Source of the DNA: Saliphagus infecundisoli
Lineage (GTDB): Archaea; Halobacteriota; Halobacteria; Halobacteriales; Natrialbaceae
Assembly (NCBI RefSeq): GCF_020177375.1
Contig: NZ_JAIWHV010000012.1
Span: 1 to 64,000 of the forward strand
DNA: 64,000 nt
Direction: 5' to 3'
The position numbers and the translations under genes are program-made. Shown piece after piece: positions 117-12,279 of this stretch; within the stretch, counting starts at the first letter, position 1, and each line of letters begins with the position of its first letter. The notes beneath the pieces were generated by a model. The model worked only from the letters and a program-made list of their open reading frames with translations. It did not search any database and was not told the DNA's origin.

Positions 117-413
117 TCAACAAGGCACCAGGTCTTCTTGTTCGTCCTCGTCGAGTTTCGGGGGCCGGCCGCCCCCGAAACTCGGCATCAGTTCTTCGAG
201 CCCACCTTCATTCCAGGCTTCTGCCCAGCGATCACCGGTGGCCGCCGACCTGCCTTCCCGGTCGGCGGCCTCCGGAATCGAATCTCCCTGATAGAGGTTT
301 TTCAGGAACCCGAGACGCCGAAGTCGGTGATCGTCTTCAGCCTCACGCAGCAATTCGTCGATCTCCTCTTCAGACAGGTGATGCTTGATCTCCTTTCGAC
401 GTGAGCGTTCCAT
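117..413 (-). pseudogene. IS630-type transposase, N-terminal fragment
   Basis: The 98-residue frame resembles the N-terminal helix-turn-helix region of haloarchaeal IS630-type transposases: an LSEEEIDELLREA segment, then RRLGFLKNLYQGDSI, a second helix with DRWAEAWNEGG, and the linker FGGGRPPKLDEDEQEDL. Similarity stops after EDL, where the frame ends in VPC and a stop. The DDE catalytic domain of roughly 250 residues is absent. The piece can at most bind element ends and cannot catalyse transposition. It marks the left part of the window as an old insertion site. Confidence 0.6.
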
Positions 414-3212: not shown

Positions 3213-4511
3213 ATGCGCCTCGACGACTATTTCGAGGACTTAGAGCCCGACGAGGAGGCAGAACGCCGCCGGCTCGCCCGGGAGAAGTCCTACGAGATCA
3301 CCGACCACTTAGAGCGGTTCGAACGCGAGTTCGAGCGGGCGCTATCGGGAGACACCCTCGTCGGCTCGACCTCGCCTTCGATCTTCGTCGGGCGTTCGAA
3401 CTACCCCGACATCCCGGTCGGCCTGCTCTCGCCGGTCGGCGAGGAAGCACGCGCCGAGGAGTACGTCACCGACAGCGGCTGGTACCAGGATGGATACGGC
3501 ATCGACGACGTGCTCGGCCGCCGGACCGGCCTGCTGAACTCGAACAAGCGCGCGAACGTCGACTCGCCGGGGATCGCGAGCCGACTCGCCCCCTCGGTCC
3601 ACGACGAGTGGGAGGGGTTCGTCGGCGTCCAGCGCGAGGTCGCCATCGCCGACCGGCCTGTGGACGTCGAGATCGGTCTCGACGGCAAACCCGACCTCGG
3701 ACTCGACGCGGGGACCGACGTCGCCACGCCGCGAGGGCCGCGTGCGTCCGCCGAGTCGGCGGACCTGACCGAAAACCCCCACGTTCCCCGGCCGGTCAAG
3801 AAGACCCTAGAGGACGACGACTGGCAGGCCGAGGGCGCGATGACCTACCTCTATCGGCGCGGGTTCGACGTCTACGAGATCAACTCGATCCTCTCGGCCG
3901 GTGCCCTGGGCGAGGCCGCCCAGCGACGGCTGGTCCCCACGCGGTGGTCGATCACCGCCGTAGACGACACCGTCGGGAAGTTTCTCCGGGGGTCGATTCG
4001 CACCGAGCAGAGCATCGACACGGTCCAGGTCTGGGAGAACGAGTACATGGGCAACCGCTACTGGGTCGTGCTCTCCCCGGGGAGCTGGGAGTTCGAACTC
4101 GTCGAGATGAAAGCCCCGGGCAGCATCTGGAACCCCGATCCCGCCGGGGGCGTCTGGATGGCCAGTGCCTCGGAGGGCTACGAGGGCCGGACGGGCTACG
4201 TCGAGGAGACCGCAGGCGCGTACTACGCGGCGCGCCTCGGTGTGCTCGAGCACCTGGAGTCGATCGGCCGGCAGGCGAAGTGTCTCGTCCTCCGCGAGGT
4301 CAGCGACGACTACTGGGCGCCCGTCGGCGTCTGGCAGGTCAGAGAGAGCGTCCGGAACGCCTTCGAGGGCGAACACGGGGAAAGCGAGACGTTCCACGGC
4401 GCCGTCTCCGCGATCGCAGAGCACCTCCCCGTGTCGGCCGACCGCCTCCGTCGGAAGTCCGAGCTCGCCGCGGGAGTCCAGTCGAACCTCGCGGCGTTCG
4501 GGCGGGATTGA
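3213..4511 (+). CDS. nreA: NreA, PCNA-interacting DNA repair protein
   Basis: The 432-residue protein matches archaeal NreA: MRLDDYFEDLEPDEEAE start, SPSIFVGRSNYPDIPVG in the first third, and NPDPAGGVWMASASEGYEG towards the end. NreA/NreB proteins of Haloferax and Archaeoglobus act in repair of mitomycin-type damage and bind PCNA. The C-terminus QSNLAAF fits a PCNA-interacting (PIP) box. The ATG at 3213 gives the family N-terminus. The current TGA stop and the last residue (Asp) come from the transposon inserted at 4508. Joining the flanks without the element gives GAG TAA, so the original protein probably ended in Glu. Confidence 0.9.
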   Translation: MRLDDYFEDLEPDEEAERRRLAREKSYEITDHLERFEREFERALSGDTLVGSTSPSIFVGRSNYPDIPVGLLSPVGEEARAEEYVTDSGWYQDGYGIDDVLGRRTGLLNSNKRANVDSPGIASRLAPSVHDEWEGFVGVQREVAIADRPVDVEIGLDGKPDLGLDAGTDVATPRGPRASAESADLTENPHVPRPVKKTLEDDDWQAEGAMTYLYRRGFDVYEINSILSAGALGEAAQRRLVPTRWSITAVDDTVGKFLRGSIRTEQSIDTVQVWENEYMGNRYWVVLSPGSWEFELVEMKAPGSIWNPDPAGGVWMASASEGYEGRTGYVEETAGAYYAARLGVLEHLESIGRQAKCLVLREVSDDYWAPVGVWQVRESVRNAFEGEHGESETFHGAVSAIAEHLPVSADRLRRKSELAAGVQSNLAAFGRD

Positions 4512-4517
4512 CATCCT

Positions 4518-4538
4518 CCACACGATTAACGTCGTGGG
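4518..4538. repeat. right-end palindrome of the tnpB element
   Basis: Imperfect hairpin CCACACGA, loop, GTCGTGGG with one bulge, about 10 bases inside the right end. It matches in position and sequence the hairpin of the non-coding element near 59413. Confidence 0.7.
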
Positions 4539-4558
4539 ATTCCCACCGCGTTGGGATA

Positions 4559-5830
4559 TTAGGGTTCGCGCTCCGTGACCTGTTCTCGCGGGGCAAAAAC
4601 GCCCTCGCCACGGTCGAACAGGCGGACCGCTGGCTGTGCCAACCAGCCGTTATCCCTATCCGGTGACGGACTCGGGAGTACTTTCTGACGGATGTTTTCT
4701 GCACCGTTCGAATCAGCGTTCGCAACCACCCCACAGTCGTCGCAGGCATACAGCCCCCGCTCGACGCGTTGGCTGCCGTCTTCCGTTCCGCAACACGAGC
4801 AGGTTTTCGACGTCCTCCGCTCGTCTTTGCGGACGACGTCAATACCACGATCTCTGCCCTTATACTCGAGCAACGTCCCGAAACGGTCGAACGCCCATCC
4901 GTGAAGATCGAGGTTGCCATGCTTGCCCCAGTTGCGCGACTCGCCGTTCTCGTCGTCGCGGATACCTCCAAGGTCGCCGATGACGACCGTTCCGACGCCT
5001 CGCTCGACACACTCTCCAATGATGTGTTTCGAGAGTGTGTGCAAGAAATGCGTCCGGCGGGCGGTCCGCTTCCGATCGAGGCGACGAGCTTTCCTTGAGC
5101 CAGGATCGTCCGTTTCTGCGCGCTTCTTGGCGAAGTAGTATTCGTCCTCTTTGAGCGCCCCGCCAGGGTACAGCAGGGATTCATCGCCGAACGACACGGC
5201 GGCAAAATTGCATATCCCGAGGTCAATCCCAGCAACTCTGTCGCCGGGCGATTCAGGAACGTCACTCTCGACGCGGCAAACGATATGCAATCGCCATTCG
5301 CCGTGTTCGTACACGGCTCGAACCTGTTGGACGTTCTCGATGGTCGTTCCAGGTGGGGCAATGGGGTCGTACTCGCAGAGCACGAAGTCGGACCATCCGT
5401 CTTTGAGGTTCTTTCCTTTCGAAAGGCGAAGGCGACCGTTCTCGGCGTCGTGCTTGAACCCCGCGGTCTTGAACGTGACAGTCGAGCGTGGGTGCTCGCC
5501 GTTGCGTTTGCGGTAGCCGGGCGGGTTTGCTTTCGTGTCCCCGTTTTCGCGCTTGCCGAACCAGCCGGTGAACGCTTCAGCGAGTTCTTGGAGAACTCGC
5601 TGACTGGACTGTGAATGAAGGTCCGCGTAGCGTTCGTGTCCCTTGAGGTACGACAGAAGCGCGTTAGCGCCGGGGATCTGGCCGCAAGCATCCCAGACAC
5701 GGTGAGCAGTCCACCGCCCAACGTTCCAGAGCTTGCTGGCGGCAAACCCGAGCGAATCGAGGTCATCAGACACCTGCTGCTGGTTGCGAATGCAGGCGCG
5801 ATAGGTGCGAGTGACGACCCCGTTCGCCAT
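4559..5830 (-). CDS. tnpB: TnpB, RNA-guided nuclease family protein
   Basis: The 423-residue protein is full length. RuvC-I is GIDLG (Asp203). RuvC-III is NADSN (Asp373). Between them is a four-cysteine zinc knuckle, C344-x2-C347 and C363-x2-C366. The RuvC-II position, usually Glu-Asp-Leu, reads VVIGDLGGI, so Gly285 stands where the catalytic Glu is expected. Nearby acidic residues (Asp286, Glu294) might substitute, since rearranged RuvC-II sites are known in TnpB/Fanzor. TnpB proteins use a right-end omega-RNA to cut empty sites, promoting element retention. Here the guide would be the nreA 3' end read in antisense. Reads as intact; activity is uncertain. Confidence 0.9.
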   Translation of the reverse strand: MANGVVTRTYRACIRNQQQVSDDLDSLGFAASKLWNVGRWTAHRVWDACGQIPGANALLSYLKGHERYADLHSQSSQRVLQELAEAFTGWFGKRENGDTKANPPGYRKRNGEHPRSTVTFKTAGFKHDAENGRLRLSKGKNLKDGWSDFVLCEYDPIAPPGTTIENVQQVRAVYEHGEWRLHIVCRVESDVPESPGDRVAGIDLGICNFAAVSFGDESLLYPGGALKEDEYYFAKKRAETDDPGSRKARRLDRKRTARRTHFLHTLSKHIIGECVERGVGTVVIGDLGGIRDDENGESRNWGKHGNLDLHGWAFDRFGTLLEYKGRDRGIDVVRKDERRTSKTCSCCGTEDGSQRVERGLYACDDCGVVANADSNGAENIRQKVLPSPSPDRDNGWLAQPAVRLFDRGEGVFAPREQVTEREP

Positions 5831-5943
5831 ACGTGACCTATGTTACGGATTACACTTATAGGTGGTCTAAGCTGGGTGAAAGTGATAGTGGAATATCCGA
5901 CCCGGCATTTGTCGAGGTGTATGAACTCGCGTACGGGATTCAT

Positions 5944-5964
5944 CCCACGGCTAAAGGCCGTGGG
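5944..5964. repeat. left-end palindrome of the tnpB element
   Basis: Perfect hairpin CCCACGGC, loop TAAAG, GCCGTGGG about 20 bases inside the left end. Such imperfectly placed hairpins are the recognition structures of Y1 transposases acting on single strands. Confidence 0.75.
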
Positions 5965-6075
5965 CTTTCTCCCTGCCATAATTGTAAGACCGGGCGTCGG
6001 TCCGTCGATCGACTTATATCGACCTCCGTATGGCACTACCGCTGACTTGGTGGTTGCTATCACACGTCCCAGCGT

Positions 6076-7539
6076 ATGTTCGATGCCTCGAACTGGAAAC
6101 GGGGGGACCAGGAGACCGAACGGGTGGGCAAGGAGCCGGAACCAAGGACGATAGAGGAGATCAAGCTGACCGAGATCCGGGGACGTCCGGTCGCGAAGTT
6201 CGTCGCCGCCTTCCTCGTCGGCTTCGTCTTCTTTCTGGTGCCCGTCCCGTGGGAGGGGCAGGTCACGGTCCCGTTCGACATCGTCGTCAGCTGGGTCACT
6301 GACTCGTTCCCGACGGTCGCGGGGGTCTACGCGCTCGCGCTCATCGTCGCGGGCGGGATCCTGACGACCGTTGCCGAACTCCGCAAGCGGGGGGTCGTCG
6401 GGATCGACGACGGCCTCGCGGAGACGCTGACGCTTCCCTATTGGGAGACCTCGGCGGCGTTCTGGTTCTTCCGGGTCGCCGGCGCGGTCCTCGCACCGTT
6501 TCTCTTCTTCGAGGTCGGGCCGGCGTGGATGGTCGCCCCCGAGACCGGCGTGCTCGTCTGGGGGACGCTCATCCTGAGCGTCGCGGTCATCATCCCCATC
6601 GGCGCGATCTTCATCAACCTCTTCGTGGAGTTGGGTGGCCTCGAGTTCGTCGGGACGATGGCCCGGCCGATCATGCGCCCGCTGTTTCACGTCCCTGGCC
6701 GGGCGGCCTTGGACAGCGTTGCCTCCTGGGTCGGCTCCTACAGCGTCGGGCTCTACGTCACCCGAAACGTCTTCGATCGCGGCGAGTACTCGAAACGAGA
6801 CGTCTACGTCATCAGCACCTGCTTCGCGACGGTTTCGATCGGGTTCGTCGGCGTCGTCGCTGCGACGGTCGATCTGCTCGAACTCTTTCCGATCATCTTC
6901 GTCTGTTACCTGATCTGTATCGCGATCACGGGGTTCGTCCTCGTCCGGGTTCCTCCGTTGAGCCGGGTGCCCGAGGAGTACGTCGCCGAACCTAACCCCG
7001 AAACTCCCTTCGAAGGGGCGCCCGCCGACTACCTCCGCTTCGGGCTCTCGGAGGCGGTCGCGAAGGCCGAGGAGGGCGGGACGATCGTCGGCGCCTCCGT
7101 CCGGGGGTTCATCGACGGGCTCAAACTCGCCGTGCTCATCCTCGGAACGATCCTCTCGATCGGGCTCGCCGCGGTCGTCATCGCCGAGTTCACGCCGATG
7201 TTCGAGATCATCGCCCAGCCGCTCGTGCCGGTGATCGAACTGCTGGGCATCCCCGACGCCGACGTCGTCGCGCCGGCGACGATCATCGGGATCACCGAGA
7301 TGTTCATCCCCGCGCTGCTGGTCGCCGAGGCCGCGCCGATGGCCCGCTTTTTCATCGCCGTGCTCTCAATCTCTCAGCTGATCTTCTTCTCGGCGGTCGG
7401 CCCGATGATGATGGACATGTTCAGTGATATCCCGATCCGCTTTCGGGATCTGGTCGTCCTCTTCGTCCTGCGGACGATCATCCTCGTACCCGTCATCGCC
7501 CTCATGACCCACGTCGTGGCCGCCGCCGGCCTGCTGTAG
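6076..7539 (+). CDS. YjiH-family membrane protein with nucleoside-recognition (Gate) domains
   Basis: The 487-residue protein has a cytosolic N-terminus of about 40 residues and about ten hydrophobic helices. Two Gate-like repeats are visible, around GAIFINLFVELGGLEFVGTMARPIMRPLFHVPG and in the second half around VIAEFTPMFEIIAQPLVPV with TEMFIPALL. YjiH-family proteins are putative transporters. It lies on the near side of the hut genes, separated by a convergently placed regulator, which makes uptake of histidine or urocanate a reasonable but unproven role. TATA-like CTTATATC lies about 65 bases upstream, so the mRNA may have a short leader. Confidence 0.8.
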   Translation: MFDASNWKRGDQETERVGKEPEPRTIEEIKLTEIRGRPVAKFVAAFLVGFVFFLVPVPWEGQVTVPFDIVVSWVTDSFPTVAGVYALALIVAGGILTTVAELRKRGVVGIDDGLAETLTLPYWETSAAFWFFRVAGAVLAPFLFFEVGPAWMVAPETGVLVWGTLILSVAVIIPIGAIFINLFVELGGLEFVGTMARPIMRPLFHVPGRAALDSVASWVGSYSVGLYVTRNVFDRGEYSKRDVYVISTCFATVSIGFVGVVAATVDLLELFPIIFVCYLICIAITGFVLVRVPPLSRVPEEYVAEPNPETPFEGAPADYLRFGLSEAVAKAEEGGTIVGASVRGFIDGLKLAVLILGTILSIGLAAVVIAEFTPMFEIIAQPLVPVIELLGIPDADVVAPATIIGITEMFIPALLVAEAAPMARFFIAVLSISQLIFFSAVGPMMMDMFSDIPIRFRDLVVLFVLRTIILVPVIALMTHVVAAAGLL

Positions 7540-7576: not shown

Positions 7577-8221
7577 TCAGTACAGATACGAGACAAGCGC
7601 GGGAAGCAGCTTTCCCTCGGCCCGCCGGAGGTGGTCTTCGGCGGTCCGGCGACCGACCCCCAGCTCCGCCGCCAGCTCGGCGGTCGTCGTCTCCCGGGGG
7701 AGTTCGTAGTAGCCCCGGGAGACGGCGAGGGCGAGGACCTCCCGCTGGCGGGCGGTCAGTTCGGGGAGCACGCCCTCTACGGATACCAGCGGCGAGGAGG
7801 GAGTGGGGGCGTGGACCTCGCGTTTCGACCGGACGTCGATCGAGAGGCCGTCATCGACGAGGGCGGCGTAGAGGTCGGCGAGGCTCGCGGAGTCGAGCGC
7901 CAGCACCCGGCAGTGTTTCGCGCCGTCGGCGTACCGGAGCGGCGGAAGCAACAGGCAGCCGTGGGGCTGGAGATATCTCTCGATCGTGGGTTCTTGCTCG
8001 CGGAGGCAGGCGCTCGTGACGACGACGGCTTCGGTTCCCGTACGGATCTCGCCGTCGATCCCGACGTCGGTCCGGACCCGCTCGACGACGGCCCCGACCT
8101 CGCCGCGGACCGAGAGCAGGTCGGCGTGGTCGTTACACCAGAGGTCGATACGGCAGTCCGTGCCGTCGGTCGGCTCGGTGTAGGGGCTCGAGTCCGGAAT
8201 CGAGAAGGTGGCCTCGTACAC
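7577..8221 (-). CDS. Bat-type HTH_10 regulator of the hut locus
   Basis: The 214-residue protein has an N-terminal sensory region ([12 protein letters not shown], later [17 protein letters not shown]) and a C-terminal HTH_10 domain: [52 protein letters not shown] in outline. This is the bacterio-opsin-activator type domain of haloarchaea. The GTG at 8221 is chosen because upstream residues look like antisense of hutU, and a TATA box lies about 25 bases before it. It is divergent from hutU and shares its promoter region, so it is the obvious candidate activator of hutUGI. Confidence 0.8.
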
Positions 8222-8245
8222 GCGGGGCGGTAGGCGCGCTCGTCG

Positions 8246-8254
8246 TATAAATAA
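8246..8254. promoter_or_regulatory. shared TATA region between hutU and the Bat-type regulator
   Basis: TATAAATAA on the plus strand reads TTATTTATA on the other, so it can serve both directions. It lies 25 bases before the GTG of the regulator (leaderless pattern) and about 53 bases before the hutU ATG. Confidence 0.5.
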
Positions 8255-8306
8255 CCCTCCGAACGGAACCCCACTGGCCTTGGATCCGCGCGTGGTTTGC
8301 AATGGC

Positions 8307-10070
8307 ATGGACGCCGAGAACGATCCGGAGACATTCCTCGGGAGCGGAGAGCCAAGCGAGCAGTGGAAGGAGTACCGGGGTGCGCCCACCGGGACCGACC
8401 TCGAATGTGAGGGGTGGCGCCAGGAGGCGGCCCTCCGCCTGCTGAACAACAACCTCGATCCGGAGGTCGCCGAGCGCCCGGAGGACCTAGTCGTCTACGG
8501 CGGCACGGGCCGAGCAGCCCGGTCGTGGGACGCCTACGACGCGATCCTCGCCGAACTGCGCGAACTCGGCGATCGGGAGACCCTGCTTGTGCAGTCGGGT
8601 AAACCCGTCGGCCGGTTCGAGACCCACGAGCGGGCGCCGCGGGTGCTGATCGCGAATTCCAATCTCGTCGGAAAGTGGGACAATTGGGAGCACTTCCACG
8701 AGCTCGAGGCGGAGGGAAAGATCATGTACGGCCAGATGACGGCGGGCTCGTGGGCCTACATCGGCACCCAGGGGATCATCCAGGGAACGTACGAGACGCT
8801 CGCGGAACTCGCCCGCCGGGAGTACGGGGATGAGGACGGCGAGGCGGATCTCGAGGGAAAGATCGTCGCGACCGGCGGCCTCGGCGGGATGGGCGGCGCC
8901 CAACCCCTCGCGGTGACGATGAACCGGGGGGTCTGTATCGCCGCCGAGGTGGACGAAGCACGGATCGATCGCCGGATCGAGACGGGCTACTGCGAGGAGA
9001 AGGTCGGTAACGTCGCGGAGGCGATCGACCGCGCCGAGGCGGCGGCCGAAGCAGGCGAGCCCTACAGCGTCGGCGTCCACTGTAACGCCGTCGATCTTCT
9101 GGAGGGGCTGCTCGAACGGGACGCCGTTCCGGACGTCGTCACCGACCAGACCAGCGCCCACGATGCTCTGGAGGGGTACTATCCGGTCGGCTACACGGTC
9201 GGGGAGGCAGACGCACTGCGCGAGCGCGATCCCGAGACGTACCGCGTGGAAAGCCTCGATACGATGGAGCGCCACGTCGAGGCGATCCTCGACCTACAGG
9301 AACGGGGCGCGATCGCCTTCGAGTACGGCAACAACATCCGGGGACAGGTCAGAGACGAACGCGGGATGGACCGCGCGTTCGATTTCCCGGGATTCGTCCC
9401 CGCTTACATCCGCCCGCAGTTCTGCCGGGGCAAGGGCCCCTTCCGCTGGCTCGCGCTGTCGGGCGACCCCGCGGACATCCACCGGACCGACGAGGCGGTC
9501 CTCGAACTGTTCCCCGGGAAGGACCACCTCCGGCGCTGGATCGAACTCGCCCGCGAGCGGGTCCGGTTCCAGGGGCTGCCCTCGCGGGTCTGCTGGCTCG
9601 GATATCAGGCGGGAGATAATGAGGAGAGTCTGACCGAGCGCGCCCGCTTCGCGCTGCGGATCAACGACCTCGTCGCCGACGGCGAGATTTCGGCGCCGAT
9701 CGTCGTCACGAGAGACCACCTCGACGCGGGGTCGGTCGCGAGTCCGAACCGCGAGACCGAGGCGATGCGGGACGGGACGGACGCGGTCGCCGACTGGCCG
9801 ATCCTGAACGCCCTGCTGAACTGTGCGGCGGGCGCCGACATCGTGAGCGTCCACGACGGCGGCGGCGTCGGCATCGGGAACGCGATCCACGCGAACAACC
9901 ACGTCGTCCTCGACGGTACCGACCTCGCCGCCGAGAAAGCCAGACGAGTGTTCACGACCGACCCCGGCATGGGCGTGATTCGTCATGCCGACGCCGGCTA
10001 CGAGGAAGCCATCGAGGAGGCGGCGGAATCGGACGTTGCGATCCCGATGGAAGAACGGGGATCGAGATGA
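8307..10070 (+). CDS. hutU: urocanate hydratase
   Basis: The 587-residue protein converts urocanate to imidazolonepropionate using tightly bound NAD+ as electrophile. The NAD loop [13 protein letters not shown] and the active-site segment [11 protein letters not shown] are present, as are the long conserved blocks [10 protein letters not shown] and [17 protein letters not shown]. Length is slightly above the bacterial norm because of acidic insertions. The ATG at 8307 ([10 protein letters not shown]) fits the usual N-terminus. It heads the operon and its stop overlaps the hutG start (ATGA). Confidence 0.95.
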
Positions 10071-11017
10071 GCTACCGGGAACCCGCCTTCGAATGGACGG
10101 CTCCCTCGTCGGATCCGAACGACCGTCAGTTCGGGGACGTCGTCGAATCCATTGAATTCGCCGACGCCGACGACTACGACGCCGTCATCGTCGGCGAACC
10201 GTTCGACGACGCCGTCATCGGCCGGACGGGAGCCGCGGAGGGACCGACGGCGATCCGCGAACGGCTGGCGGCGACGAAGACCCATCACTTCGACGCCGAC
10301 CCCGTCGGGTCGATCGGCGACCTCGGAGATCTCGGCTTCGCGGGTGACGCCGGCGACCCCCTCCCGGAGACCGTCGCCGAGAAGCAAGACCACCTCCAGC
10401 GGTTCGCCACACGGGAGATCCACGCCTCCGACGCGCTCCCCGTGTTCCTGGGAGGAGACAACTCTCTGACGTATCCGAACGCCGCTCCGTTACTGGATCG
10501 AGGCAGCCTCGGCGTCGTGAACTTCGACGCCCACCTCGACGTCAGGGAGGTCCGGGACGGCCCGACAAGCGGGACCCCGTATCGACAACTGTTCGAGGCC
10601 GGACTCGACGCCTACGCCTGCATCGGCGCCAGACACTTCGAGACGTCGAGCGCGTACGCCGACTACGTGGACGAGCGGGGCGGCGAGGTGGTGACCGCCG
10701 AGGAGGTCGGCGAGGATCCAGTTGTCGCGGCCGAACTCGCGATGGACGCGATGGGCGATCTCGACGCCCTGTACGTCAGCGTGGATCTCGACGTGCTCGA
10801 CGAGTCGGCCGCGCCGGGCGTGAGTGCCCCGACCCCTGGGGGGCTTTCGACCCGAGAACTATATCGGGCGGTGCGGCTGATGGCAAGCGACGACCGGCTC
10901 GCGGGGTTCGAGATCGTCGAGTGTGCGCCGCCGCTCGACCGGGGCGGTCGGACCGTAGACGCTGCCGCACGGGCCGTCGCCCACGGACTGGCGGGCTACC
11001 TGGAGGTCGAACGATGA
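10067..11017 (+). CDS. hutG: formimidoylglutamase, arginase superfamily
   Basis: The 316-residue ureohydrolase-fold enzyme should cleave formiminoglutamate to glutamate and formamide in the cytosol. Manganese-site motifs NFDAHLDVR and [14 protein letters not shown] are intact. The first motif reads FLGGDNSLT: Asn replaces the His usually present in GGDHS of the superfamily. It starts within the hutU stop and ends within the hutI start, so the three genes are translationally coupled. Agmatinase or another ureohydrolase would be the alternative, but context makes HutG clear. Confidence 0.9.
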
Positions 11018-12279
11018 GCACGAACGCGAACTATACGATCGTCCACGGGATCGGCGAACTGGTGACCGGACCGGCCGACCGCGGGGGAGAAAGAGGTCCG
11101 GAGCCGCCCGACGAGCCCGTCCTCGTCCGCGAGGAGGGCGCGGCGGTCGTCGCCAGCGGCGGCAAGGTGGTCGCGACGGGTCCGTCCGACGAACTCGTCC
11201 GGGAGTACCCCCCGGAGAACGCGGCGACGGCGATCTACGCCGAGGGGAACCCCGTCCTGCCGGGATTCGTCGATCCCCACACCCACGCGGTCTTCGCCGG
11301 CGACCGCTCCGACGAGTTCGAGGCCAAACTCCGCGGGAAGAGCTATCAGGAGATCCTCGCGGAGGGCGGCGGCATCCTCCGGACCGTCCGGGCGGTTCGG
11401 GAGGCCGAGGAGGACGACCTCGTCGCCTCCCTCCGGGAGCACCTGGACGTCATGCTCGCCCACGGGACGACCACGGTGGAGGTCAAATCGGGGTACGGGC
11501 TCGAAAGCGAGACCGAACTCGAGCTCTTGTCGGCGATCGAGCGGGCGGGCGCCGGCCACCCCGTGGACGTCGTCCCGACGTTCATGGGCGCCCACGCGGT
11601 TCCCGAGGGAAGCGAGGCAGACGCCTACGTCGAGCGGGTCGTCGAGGACCAGCTTCCCGCCGTCGAGAAGCAGGGGATCGCCGAGTTCTGTGACGTCTTC
11701 TGCGAGGAGGGCGCCTTCTCGGTCGAACAGTCCCGACGCGTCCTCGAGGCCGGGATCGATCACGGGCTGACGCCGAAGATCCACGCCGACGAGTTCGCGA
11801 CCATCGGCGGGACGGACCTCGCTGCGGATCTCGGGGCCGCGAGCGCCGATCACCTGCTCCAGTCCGAGAGCAGCGACGTCGAGCGGTTGCTCTCGGCGGG
11901 CGTGACCCCGGTCGTCCTTCCGGGGACCGCCTTCGGACTCGGGGGCGAATATCCCGACCTCGAACCCTACCGCCGCCGGGGGACGGTCCCCGCCGTCGGG
12001 ACGGACTTCAACCCGAACTGTTACGCCCGGAGCATGGGCTTTTCGGCCACCCTCGCCTGTGTTGGGATGGGGATGACGCCCGCGGAGGCGGTGGTCGGGA
12101 TCACGTCGCGGGCTGCAGGAGCGATCGACCGTCCGGAGCGGGGAATCATCGAGCCGGGCGCGCCCGCCGACCTGGTGGTCCTCGGGGCGCCTTCCTACCG
12201 CCACCTCGCCTACGACTACGACGGCAACGCCGTCGATCGGGTCCTGAAGGGCGGGAAACTCGTTGTCGGTGGCGGATGA
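11014..12279 (+). CDS. hutI: imidazolonepropionase
   Basis: The 421-residue amidohydrolase-fold enzyme hydrolyses imidazolone-5-propionate to formiminoglutamate. Metal-binding [25 protein letters not shown] and GTDFNPN are all present. ATGA overlap with hutG. It is the last gene of the operon; no histidine ammonia-lyase follows, and a minus-strand HalOD1 gene begins only 20 bases beyond its stop. Confidence 0.95.

What the first reader, a model, noticed from the sequence alone, without database searches (positions are those of the whole stretch)
4508..5983. tnpB element inserted on the nreA stop codon, replacing it
Reading across the deleted element (4507 joined to 5984) gives GGG CGG GAG TAA: a native Glu codon and stop. 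The element supplies TTGACATC, so the gene now ends GAT TGA. Thus the insertion changed only the last residue. The minus-strand TTAC before the left end and TCAA at the right end match the IS608 cleavage sites, and TTAC is part of the old stop region. The guide region of the omega-RNA, just outside the right end, would be antisense to the nreA 3' end, so any TnpB product is aimed at the empty nreA allele.
Basis: partly seen in the sequence, partly recalled or inferred. Interest (0 to 1): 0.7.

Follow-up and report, generated by a model that had tools for sequence, protein, structure and literature searches.

The report
TnpB transposon swapping nreA's stop codon
A small RNA-guided mobile element in a salt-loving archaeon has landed exactly on the stop codon of a DNA-repair gene and put its own stop codon there, and a survey of relatives shows that roughly a third of such elements sit on stop codons in the same way, which lets them invade genes almost silently.

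Summary
A tnpA-less TnpB element (4508-5983, minus strand; Natrialbaceae haloarchaeon) has TTAC before its left end, GGATGTCAA at its right end and an Rfam sot0042 omega-RNA. Joining the flanks gives GAG TAA; the element turns this into GAT TGA, three residues past NreA's PCNA-binding box. No congener with an empty nreA site is held, so this insertion is not proven by its own empty site. The mechanism is supported at other loci: of four unrelated host genes carrying related elements, three stop exactly where predicted in every relative checked (29/29, 29/29, 11/11), the fourth in 13/29 and one codon later in 16/29. The pattern is general: 18-22 of 51 TTAC elements sit on an NNG-TAA stop and supply TGA, against 4-12% of comparable sites (p about 1e-7). 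Coding sequence enters the right end in the stop-preserving frame 23 times, against 1 and 3. The stop exchange is built into the ends (G-TAA to T-TGA), not a coincidence peculiar to nreA. Why stops exceed intergenic sites is open. TnpB cleavage of empty nreA is untested; the usual RuvC-II Glu is Gly.

The parts
3213..4511 (+). nreA (archaeal DNA repair protein NreA, 432 aa), now ending GRD-TGA
   Evidence: Pfam Nre_N/Nre_C; NCBIfam NF041387 equivalog 752 bits
4479..4499 (+). PCNA-interacting (PIP) box QSNLAAF at the NreA C-terminus, left intact by the insertion
   Evidence: sequence; conserved in relatives; PIP deletion phenocopies nreA loss in Haloferax volcanii (PMC4929162)
4506..4511 (+). 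present last codon and stop, GAT TGA; only 4506-4507 are host DNA, T-TGA is element
4508..4511 (-). right-end cleavage tetranucleotide TCAA (in GGATGTCAA), supplying T-TGA to the opposite strand
   Evidence: same right end in related elements
4518..4540 (-). right-end imperfect subterminal hairpin
   Evidence: single-strand DNA fold, z -1.6; corresponding palindrome in relatives
4518..4683 (-). omega-RNA scaffold (sot RNA) overlapping the 3' end of tnpB
   Evidence: Rfam RF02656 sot0042, 93.1 bits, E=3e-24
4488..4507 (-). predicted guide: host DNA just outside the right end, antisense to the last nreA codons
   Evidence: inference from TnpB/omega-RNA anatomy; in the own genome the TAM+guide pattern (up to 3 mismatches) meets this site only with TCAA in place of TTAC, and no faithful empty copy
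4559..5830 (-). tnpB, 423 aa, no tnpA in the element
   Evidence: Pfam OrfB_IS605 and Cas12f1-like_TNB; NF040570
5944..5964 (-). left-end subterminal hairpin
   Evidence: single-strand DNA fold z -4.2; corresponding palindrome and GGAGAA motif in relatives
5984..5987 (-). target tetranucleotide TTAC (putative TAM); its complement GTAA holds the former nreA stop TAA (5985-5987)

Best explanation
This is a solo-tnpB element of the haloarchaeal IS200/IS605 (IS1341-type) group. It was mobilised by a Y1 transposase acting in trans and inserted 3' of a TTAC that is the complement of the last base of nreA's final sense codon plus its TAA stop. Because the target's complement is G-TAA and the right end's complement is T-TGA in the same frame, insertion into any NNG-TAA stop in this orientation gives NNT-TGA: the stop moves from host to element, the protein keeps its length and at most its last residue changes (here Glu to Asp, after an intact PIP box). 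Such insertions are therefore nearly silent and survive, which explains at least part of why many related elements sit on stop codons of convergent genes. By anatomy the omega-RNA guide is antisense to the last codons, next to the TTAC of an empty allele, as in other TnpB elements. Shown: boundaries, target, omega-RNA, frame, stop exchange at other loci, enrichment. Inferred: transposition in trans, guide use, the exact former nreA end, and silence for NreA.
For: Ends and omega-RNA. Stop exchange checked at other host genes: an Lrp/AsnC gene with uninterrupted 93% alignments across the junction and GAG TAA in relatives, a DUF5802 gene aligned through the junction into downstream sequence, a histone-deacetylase-like gene and a DUF7125 gene; native stops at the predicted codon in 13/29 (the other 16 one codon longer), 29/29, 29/29 and 11/11. 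Host proteins with complete Pfam domains up to the end, e.g. NDK, SHMT, DUF7125, DUF7835. NCBI annotation of a Halobaculum plasmid places the end of a TauE gene in the element's right end. Enrichment: 18/51 against 17/392 or 96/1132 GTAA sites, p 7e-10 and 2.6e-7; 21/51 against 59/704, p 2.5e-9. Frame test 23:1:3 of 110. Three full-length Y1 tnpA genes lie elsewhere in the genome.
Against: No empty nreA site was found: no congener is held, and the downstream gene is not next to nreA in relatives, so a rearrangement after insertion is not excluded. Gene calls in the enrichment test come from a codon-usage score trained on these same loci, not curated annotation. The control frequency of stop sites varies (4-12%) with control and threshold. 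Selection alone does not obviously explain why stops exceed intergenic sites by 4-9 fold.
Confidence: 0.85

Rival explanations
1. Ordinary insertion plus survivorship only: TnpA inserts at TTAC anywhere, and stop-codon and intergenic hits are what purifying selection leaves. Nothing favours stops. (This is a rival about the cause of the enrichment, not about the anatomy.)
For: The stop exchange is automatic from the ends. At the sites checked the element is present in one species only, with native stops in all relatives examined, so there is no sign of spread along a conserved site.
Against: Stops exceed intergenic GTAA sites (odds ratio 9.0 with p 4e-7 by one control, 3.9 with p 2e-4 by another), while hits inside genes are not significantly depleted (17/51), which simple survivorship would not predict.
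Confidence: 0.5
2. Guide-assisted retention or homing: elements on stops carry guides against conserved last codons and a TAM inside the stop, so TnpB cutting of empty alleles restores or spreads them among chromosome copies and related cells, at no cost to the gene.
For: Guide position and TAM fit; excess at stops over intergenic sites. TnpB-dependent retention is established for other IS605 elements (own knowledge).
Against: No host site was seen occupied in a second species among the relatives examined; the Pfam-named host genes all differ. The usual RuvC-II Glu is Gly.
Confidence: 0.2
3. The element truncated nreA: the ancestral gene ran further and the present end is a chance stop.
For: The empty nreA allele is not available.
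Against: NreA ends at its natural length, PIP box plus 3 residues (relatives 0-7), and joined flanks give a stop at the same codon. In the other tested genes the element sits at the natural end.
Confidence: 0.05
4. Exapted antisense regulator: TnpB/omega-RNA kept at this site to control nreA, like TldR repressors.
For: Guide antisense to nreA; altered RuvC-II motif.
Against: The altered motif is family-wide, at many unrelated sites; no conservation of this insertion in 80 NreA loci; a guide at a 3' end is a poor position for repression of initiation.
Confidence: 0.03

Closest known systems
Haloarchaeal IS1341-type (solo tnpB) elements of the IS200/IS605 family
   Same: tnpB without tnpA, subterminal palindromes, no target duplication, sot/omega-RNA at the 3' end of tnpB (PMC3119063, PMC12558985)
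   Different: None in anatomy. The position on a stop codon and the family-wide stop exchange were not found described in the papers searched
IS608 (Helicobacter pylori)
   Same: TTAC target and TCAA right end, single-strand insertion 3' of the target (ends from own knowledge)
   Different: No tnpA inside the element; TnpB and ends otherwise diverged; high-GC host, where GTAA is rare and a notable share lies at stops
TnpB/omega-RNA nucleases (ISDra2 and others)
   Same: TnpB domains and omega-RNA scaffold next to the right end
   Different: RuvC-II Glu replaced by Gly in the family; Glu337 invariant. Activity not tested
Mobile elements that spare their host gene (IStrons, inteins, Tn7 at glmS)
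   Same: Insertion with little cost to the gene
   Different: Here neither splicing nor a downstream target: the element's own end restores the stop codon

Membership tests
IS200/IS605 family, solo-tnpB (IS1341-type) group | TnpB (OrfB_IS605) protein | tested here: met
   PF01385 8.5e-24, PF07282 3.9e-18, NF040570 199 bits
IS200/IS605 family, solo-tnpB (IS1341-type) group | insertion 3' of a short fixed target, no target duplication | tested here: met
   44/67 TTAC and 10/67 TTAT at the left end; related empty sites show no duplication
IS200/IS605 family, solo-tnpB (IS1341-type) group | subterminal palindromes at both ends | tested here: met
   left hairpin z -4.2; right hairpin weaker, z -1.6
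IS200/IS605 family, solo-tnpB (IS1341-type) group | mobilised by a Y1 TnpA (in trans) | tested here: inconclusive
   no tnpA in the element; three full-length Y1 tnpA genes elsewhere in the genome; not shown to act on it
TnpB/omega-RNA guided nuclease | omega-RNA scaffold ending at the right end, followed by guide from the flank | tested here: met
   sot0042 at 4683-4518 minus; guide inferred
TnpB/omega-RNA guided nuclease | RuvC D-E-D catalytic triad | tested here: inconclusive
   D203 and D373 invariant; RuvC-II position is Gly285 throughout the 123 aligned relatives; Glu337 invariant could substitute
TnpB/omega-RNA guided nuclease | RNA-guided DNA cleavage | not testable with these tools
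   needs an assay
Homing-type element | same site occupied in several lineages | tested here: not met
   four host-gene sites occupied in one species each, relatives examined all with native stops; nreA site empty in 80 loci

The most novel reading that the evidence does not exclude
Stop codons are a preferred niche for TTAC/TCAA TnpB elements, beyond what survival explains: the target lies in the stop, the right end restores a stop in frame, and the guide reads the conserved last codons, so the element can live in essential genes and be defended by its own guide without harming them.
Probability: 0.3. Interest if true: 0.75.

Novelty: new member of a known kind. Interest (0 to 1): 0.5.

Why it matters
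The element itself is a standard haloarchaeal TnpB transposon. What matters is the rule it revealed: the fixed ends of TTAC-target IS605 elements convert NNG-TAA into NNT-TGA, and in haloarchaea a third or more of sampled elements use this. It gives a simple answer to how a transposon can enter conserved genes (NreA, serine hydroxymethyltransferase, nucleoside diphosphate kinase, Cdc6/Orc1) at little cost, shows where TnpB guides then point, and makes the roles of target choice, selection and TnpB retention directly testable.

Tried and rejected
Empty nreA site: 61 whole genomes of relatives, genus search and 80 named NreA loci; no congener, downstream gene not syntenic. TnpB relatives in viral contigs: nothing close, by protein, by pattern or by profile; a short right-end pattern gave mostly unrelated matches. 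Elements with TCAT and TCAC ends: 3 of 13 and 0 of 5 with coding sequence in the stop frame, too few. TTAT elements: 2 of 12 on stops, not conclusive. A first gene-call control had a crude intergenic class and was replaced by a non-overlapping gene caller and a second set of loci. Literature searches for IS605/TnpB insertion at stop codons found no report, within an open-access library only.

Full report
What is there. The window lies in a Natrialbaceae haloarchaeon, the only genome of its genus held. nreA (3213-4511, +) encodes the archaeal repair protein NreA. Directly at its end lies a 1476-bp element on the opposite strand with one gene, tnpB (4559-5830, -), and an omega-RNA scaffold, Rfam sot0042, at 4683-4518. 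On the minus strand the element follows TTAC (5987-5984) and ends GGATGTCAA (4516-4508). Both ends carry subterminal hairpins, the left one strong and the right one weak. There is no tnpA inside; three full-length Y1 tnpA genes lie elsewhere in the genome.

Checking the finding. Removing the element joins 4507 to 5984 and gives GGG CGG GAG TAA. The element gives GGG CGG GAT TGA. The target and end are family traits: among related elements anchored on a conserved left-end motif, 44 of 67 have TTAC and 10 TTAT at the insertion point, and none of 871 neighbouring tetramers is TTAC. The right end GGATGTCAA is shared by most relatives down to about 60% TnpB identity.

Geometry. The complement of TTAC is GTAA and the complement of TCAA is TTGA. 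If the gene's frame puts G at the third codon position, an empty site reads NNG TAA and an occupied site NNT TGA. So for any gene in that frame the stop is both present without the element and restored with it. Reading a stop in both states is therefore not independent evidence. What carries weight is the frame and the natural length of NreA: the present protein ends three residues after the PIP box, within the range 0-7 of 80 relatives. The PIP box, whose loss abolishes NreA repair function in Haloferax volcanii (PMC4929162), is untouched.

Direct empty site. None of the 80 NreA loci carries an element there, and several end GAG TAA or AAG TAA, but none is close enough to match the junction, and the downstream gene at 6076 is not next to nreA in any of them. 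The nreA insertion is thus inferred, not proven by its own empty site.

Test of the mechanism at other loci. About 130 related tnpB loci were collected from Halobacteria genomes. For four host genes the predicted empty site was searched in congeners. An Lrp/AsnC gene aligns without interruption over 404 bases to relatives at 93%, with GAG TAA exactly at the junction in two of them. A DUF5802 gene aligns through the junction, with GCG TAA/TAG followed by matching downstream sequence in two relatives, and ends at the predicted codon in 29 of 29. A histone-deacetylase-like gene ends at the predicted codon in 29 of 29 relatives and a DUF7125 gene in 11 of 11. The Lrp gene ends there in 13 of 29 and one codon later in 16. 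Every relative examined carries its native stop at these sites.

Frequency. At the right end of 110 TCAA elements, coding sequence runs into the stop-preserving frame in 23 cases and into the other two frames in 1 and 3. Among 51 elements with both ends defined and a TTAC target, 18 lie on the stop of a called gene, against 17 of 392 other GTAA sites in the same loci and 96 of 1132 in the NreA loci (p 7e-10 and 2.6e-7). An earlier scoring gave 21 of 51 against 59 of 704 (p 2.5e-9), and at the loosest threshold 22 of 51 against 81 of 704. Host genes include serine hydroxymethyltransferase, nucleoside diphosphate kinase, aldo/keto reductase, a Bat-type regulator and a PIN/KH ATPase. A Cdc6/Orc1 gene and a TauE gene carry elements whose left end was not defined. 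Where a Pfam model covers the C-terminus it is often complete to the end. NCBI's own annotation of the TauE locus ends the gene in the element. Of the 22 TTAC cases the last codon is unchanged in meaning in 13 (GCG, CTG, CGG, GGG); GAG to GAT, as in nreA, occurs in 5.

Interpretation. Near-silent insertion by geometry plus survival explains at least part of the pattern. Two things are not explained by it. Stops exceed intergenic GTAA sites by 4-9 fold, and insertions inside called genes are not significantly depleted. Target choice by the transposase, transcription of the element towards the host gene, or TnpB-guided retention could contribute. Homing of one site between species is not seen.

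The guide. By TnpB anatomy the guide would be 4507 downwards on the minus strand, antisense to the last nreA codons. In the own genome the TAM+guide pattern, at up to 3 mismatches, meets this site only with TCAA in place of TTAC; the only other match keeping TTAC has 3 mismatches in the guide. Whether this TnpB cuts is unknown: the RuvC-II Glu of solved TnpB and Cas12f proteins is Gly285 throughout 123 aligned relatives, with Glu337 invariant as a possible substitute. Rearranged TnpB catalytic sites are known (own knowledge).

Novelty. The element is a new member of a known group. The stop exchange as a recurrent habit was not found in six literature searches of an open-access library, which does not prove it unreported.

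Noticed in passing
window 4559-5830 (-), residue Gly285: The tnpB family has VVIGDL where solved TnpB/Cas12f proteins have xMEDL: the RuvC-II catalytic Glu is Gly throughout 123 aligned relatives, while Glu337 near the zinc motif is invariant. Possible rearranged catalytic site.
   Followed up: partly
L163, L164, L188, L192, L219, L249 and others: Related tnpB elements ending TCAT or TCAC instead of TCAA appear to use a different target; their ends would also supply TGA in the same frame.
   Followed up: partly
G000 contigs C18, C74, C1, C25 (L032, L033, L034, L042): Three further tnpB copies of the same family (53-69% identity) and one 3' remnant that keeps an intact omega-RNA-like right end.
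   Followed up: partly
window 8208-12279 (+): Urocanase, an arginase-family gene and an amidohydrolase (imidazolonepropionase-like): a histidine-degradation cluster (Pfam).
   Followed up: no
window 117-413 (-): Short ORF with winged helix-turn-helix domains resembling the N-terminal part of a transposase.
   Followed up: no
TTAC elements scored inside genes (e.g. L184, L199, L215, L235): Of 17 elements inside called genes, 13 lie with TTAC on the coding strand and 4 with GTAA on it, an orientation bias not examined further.
   Followed up: no
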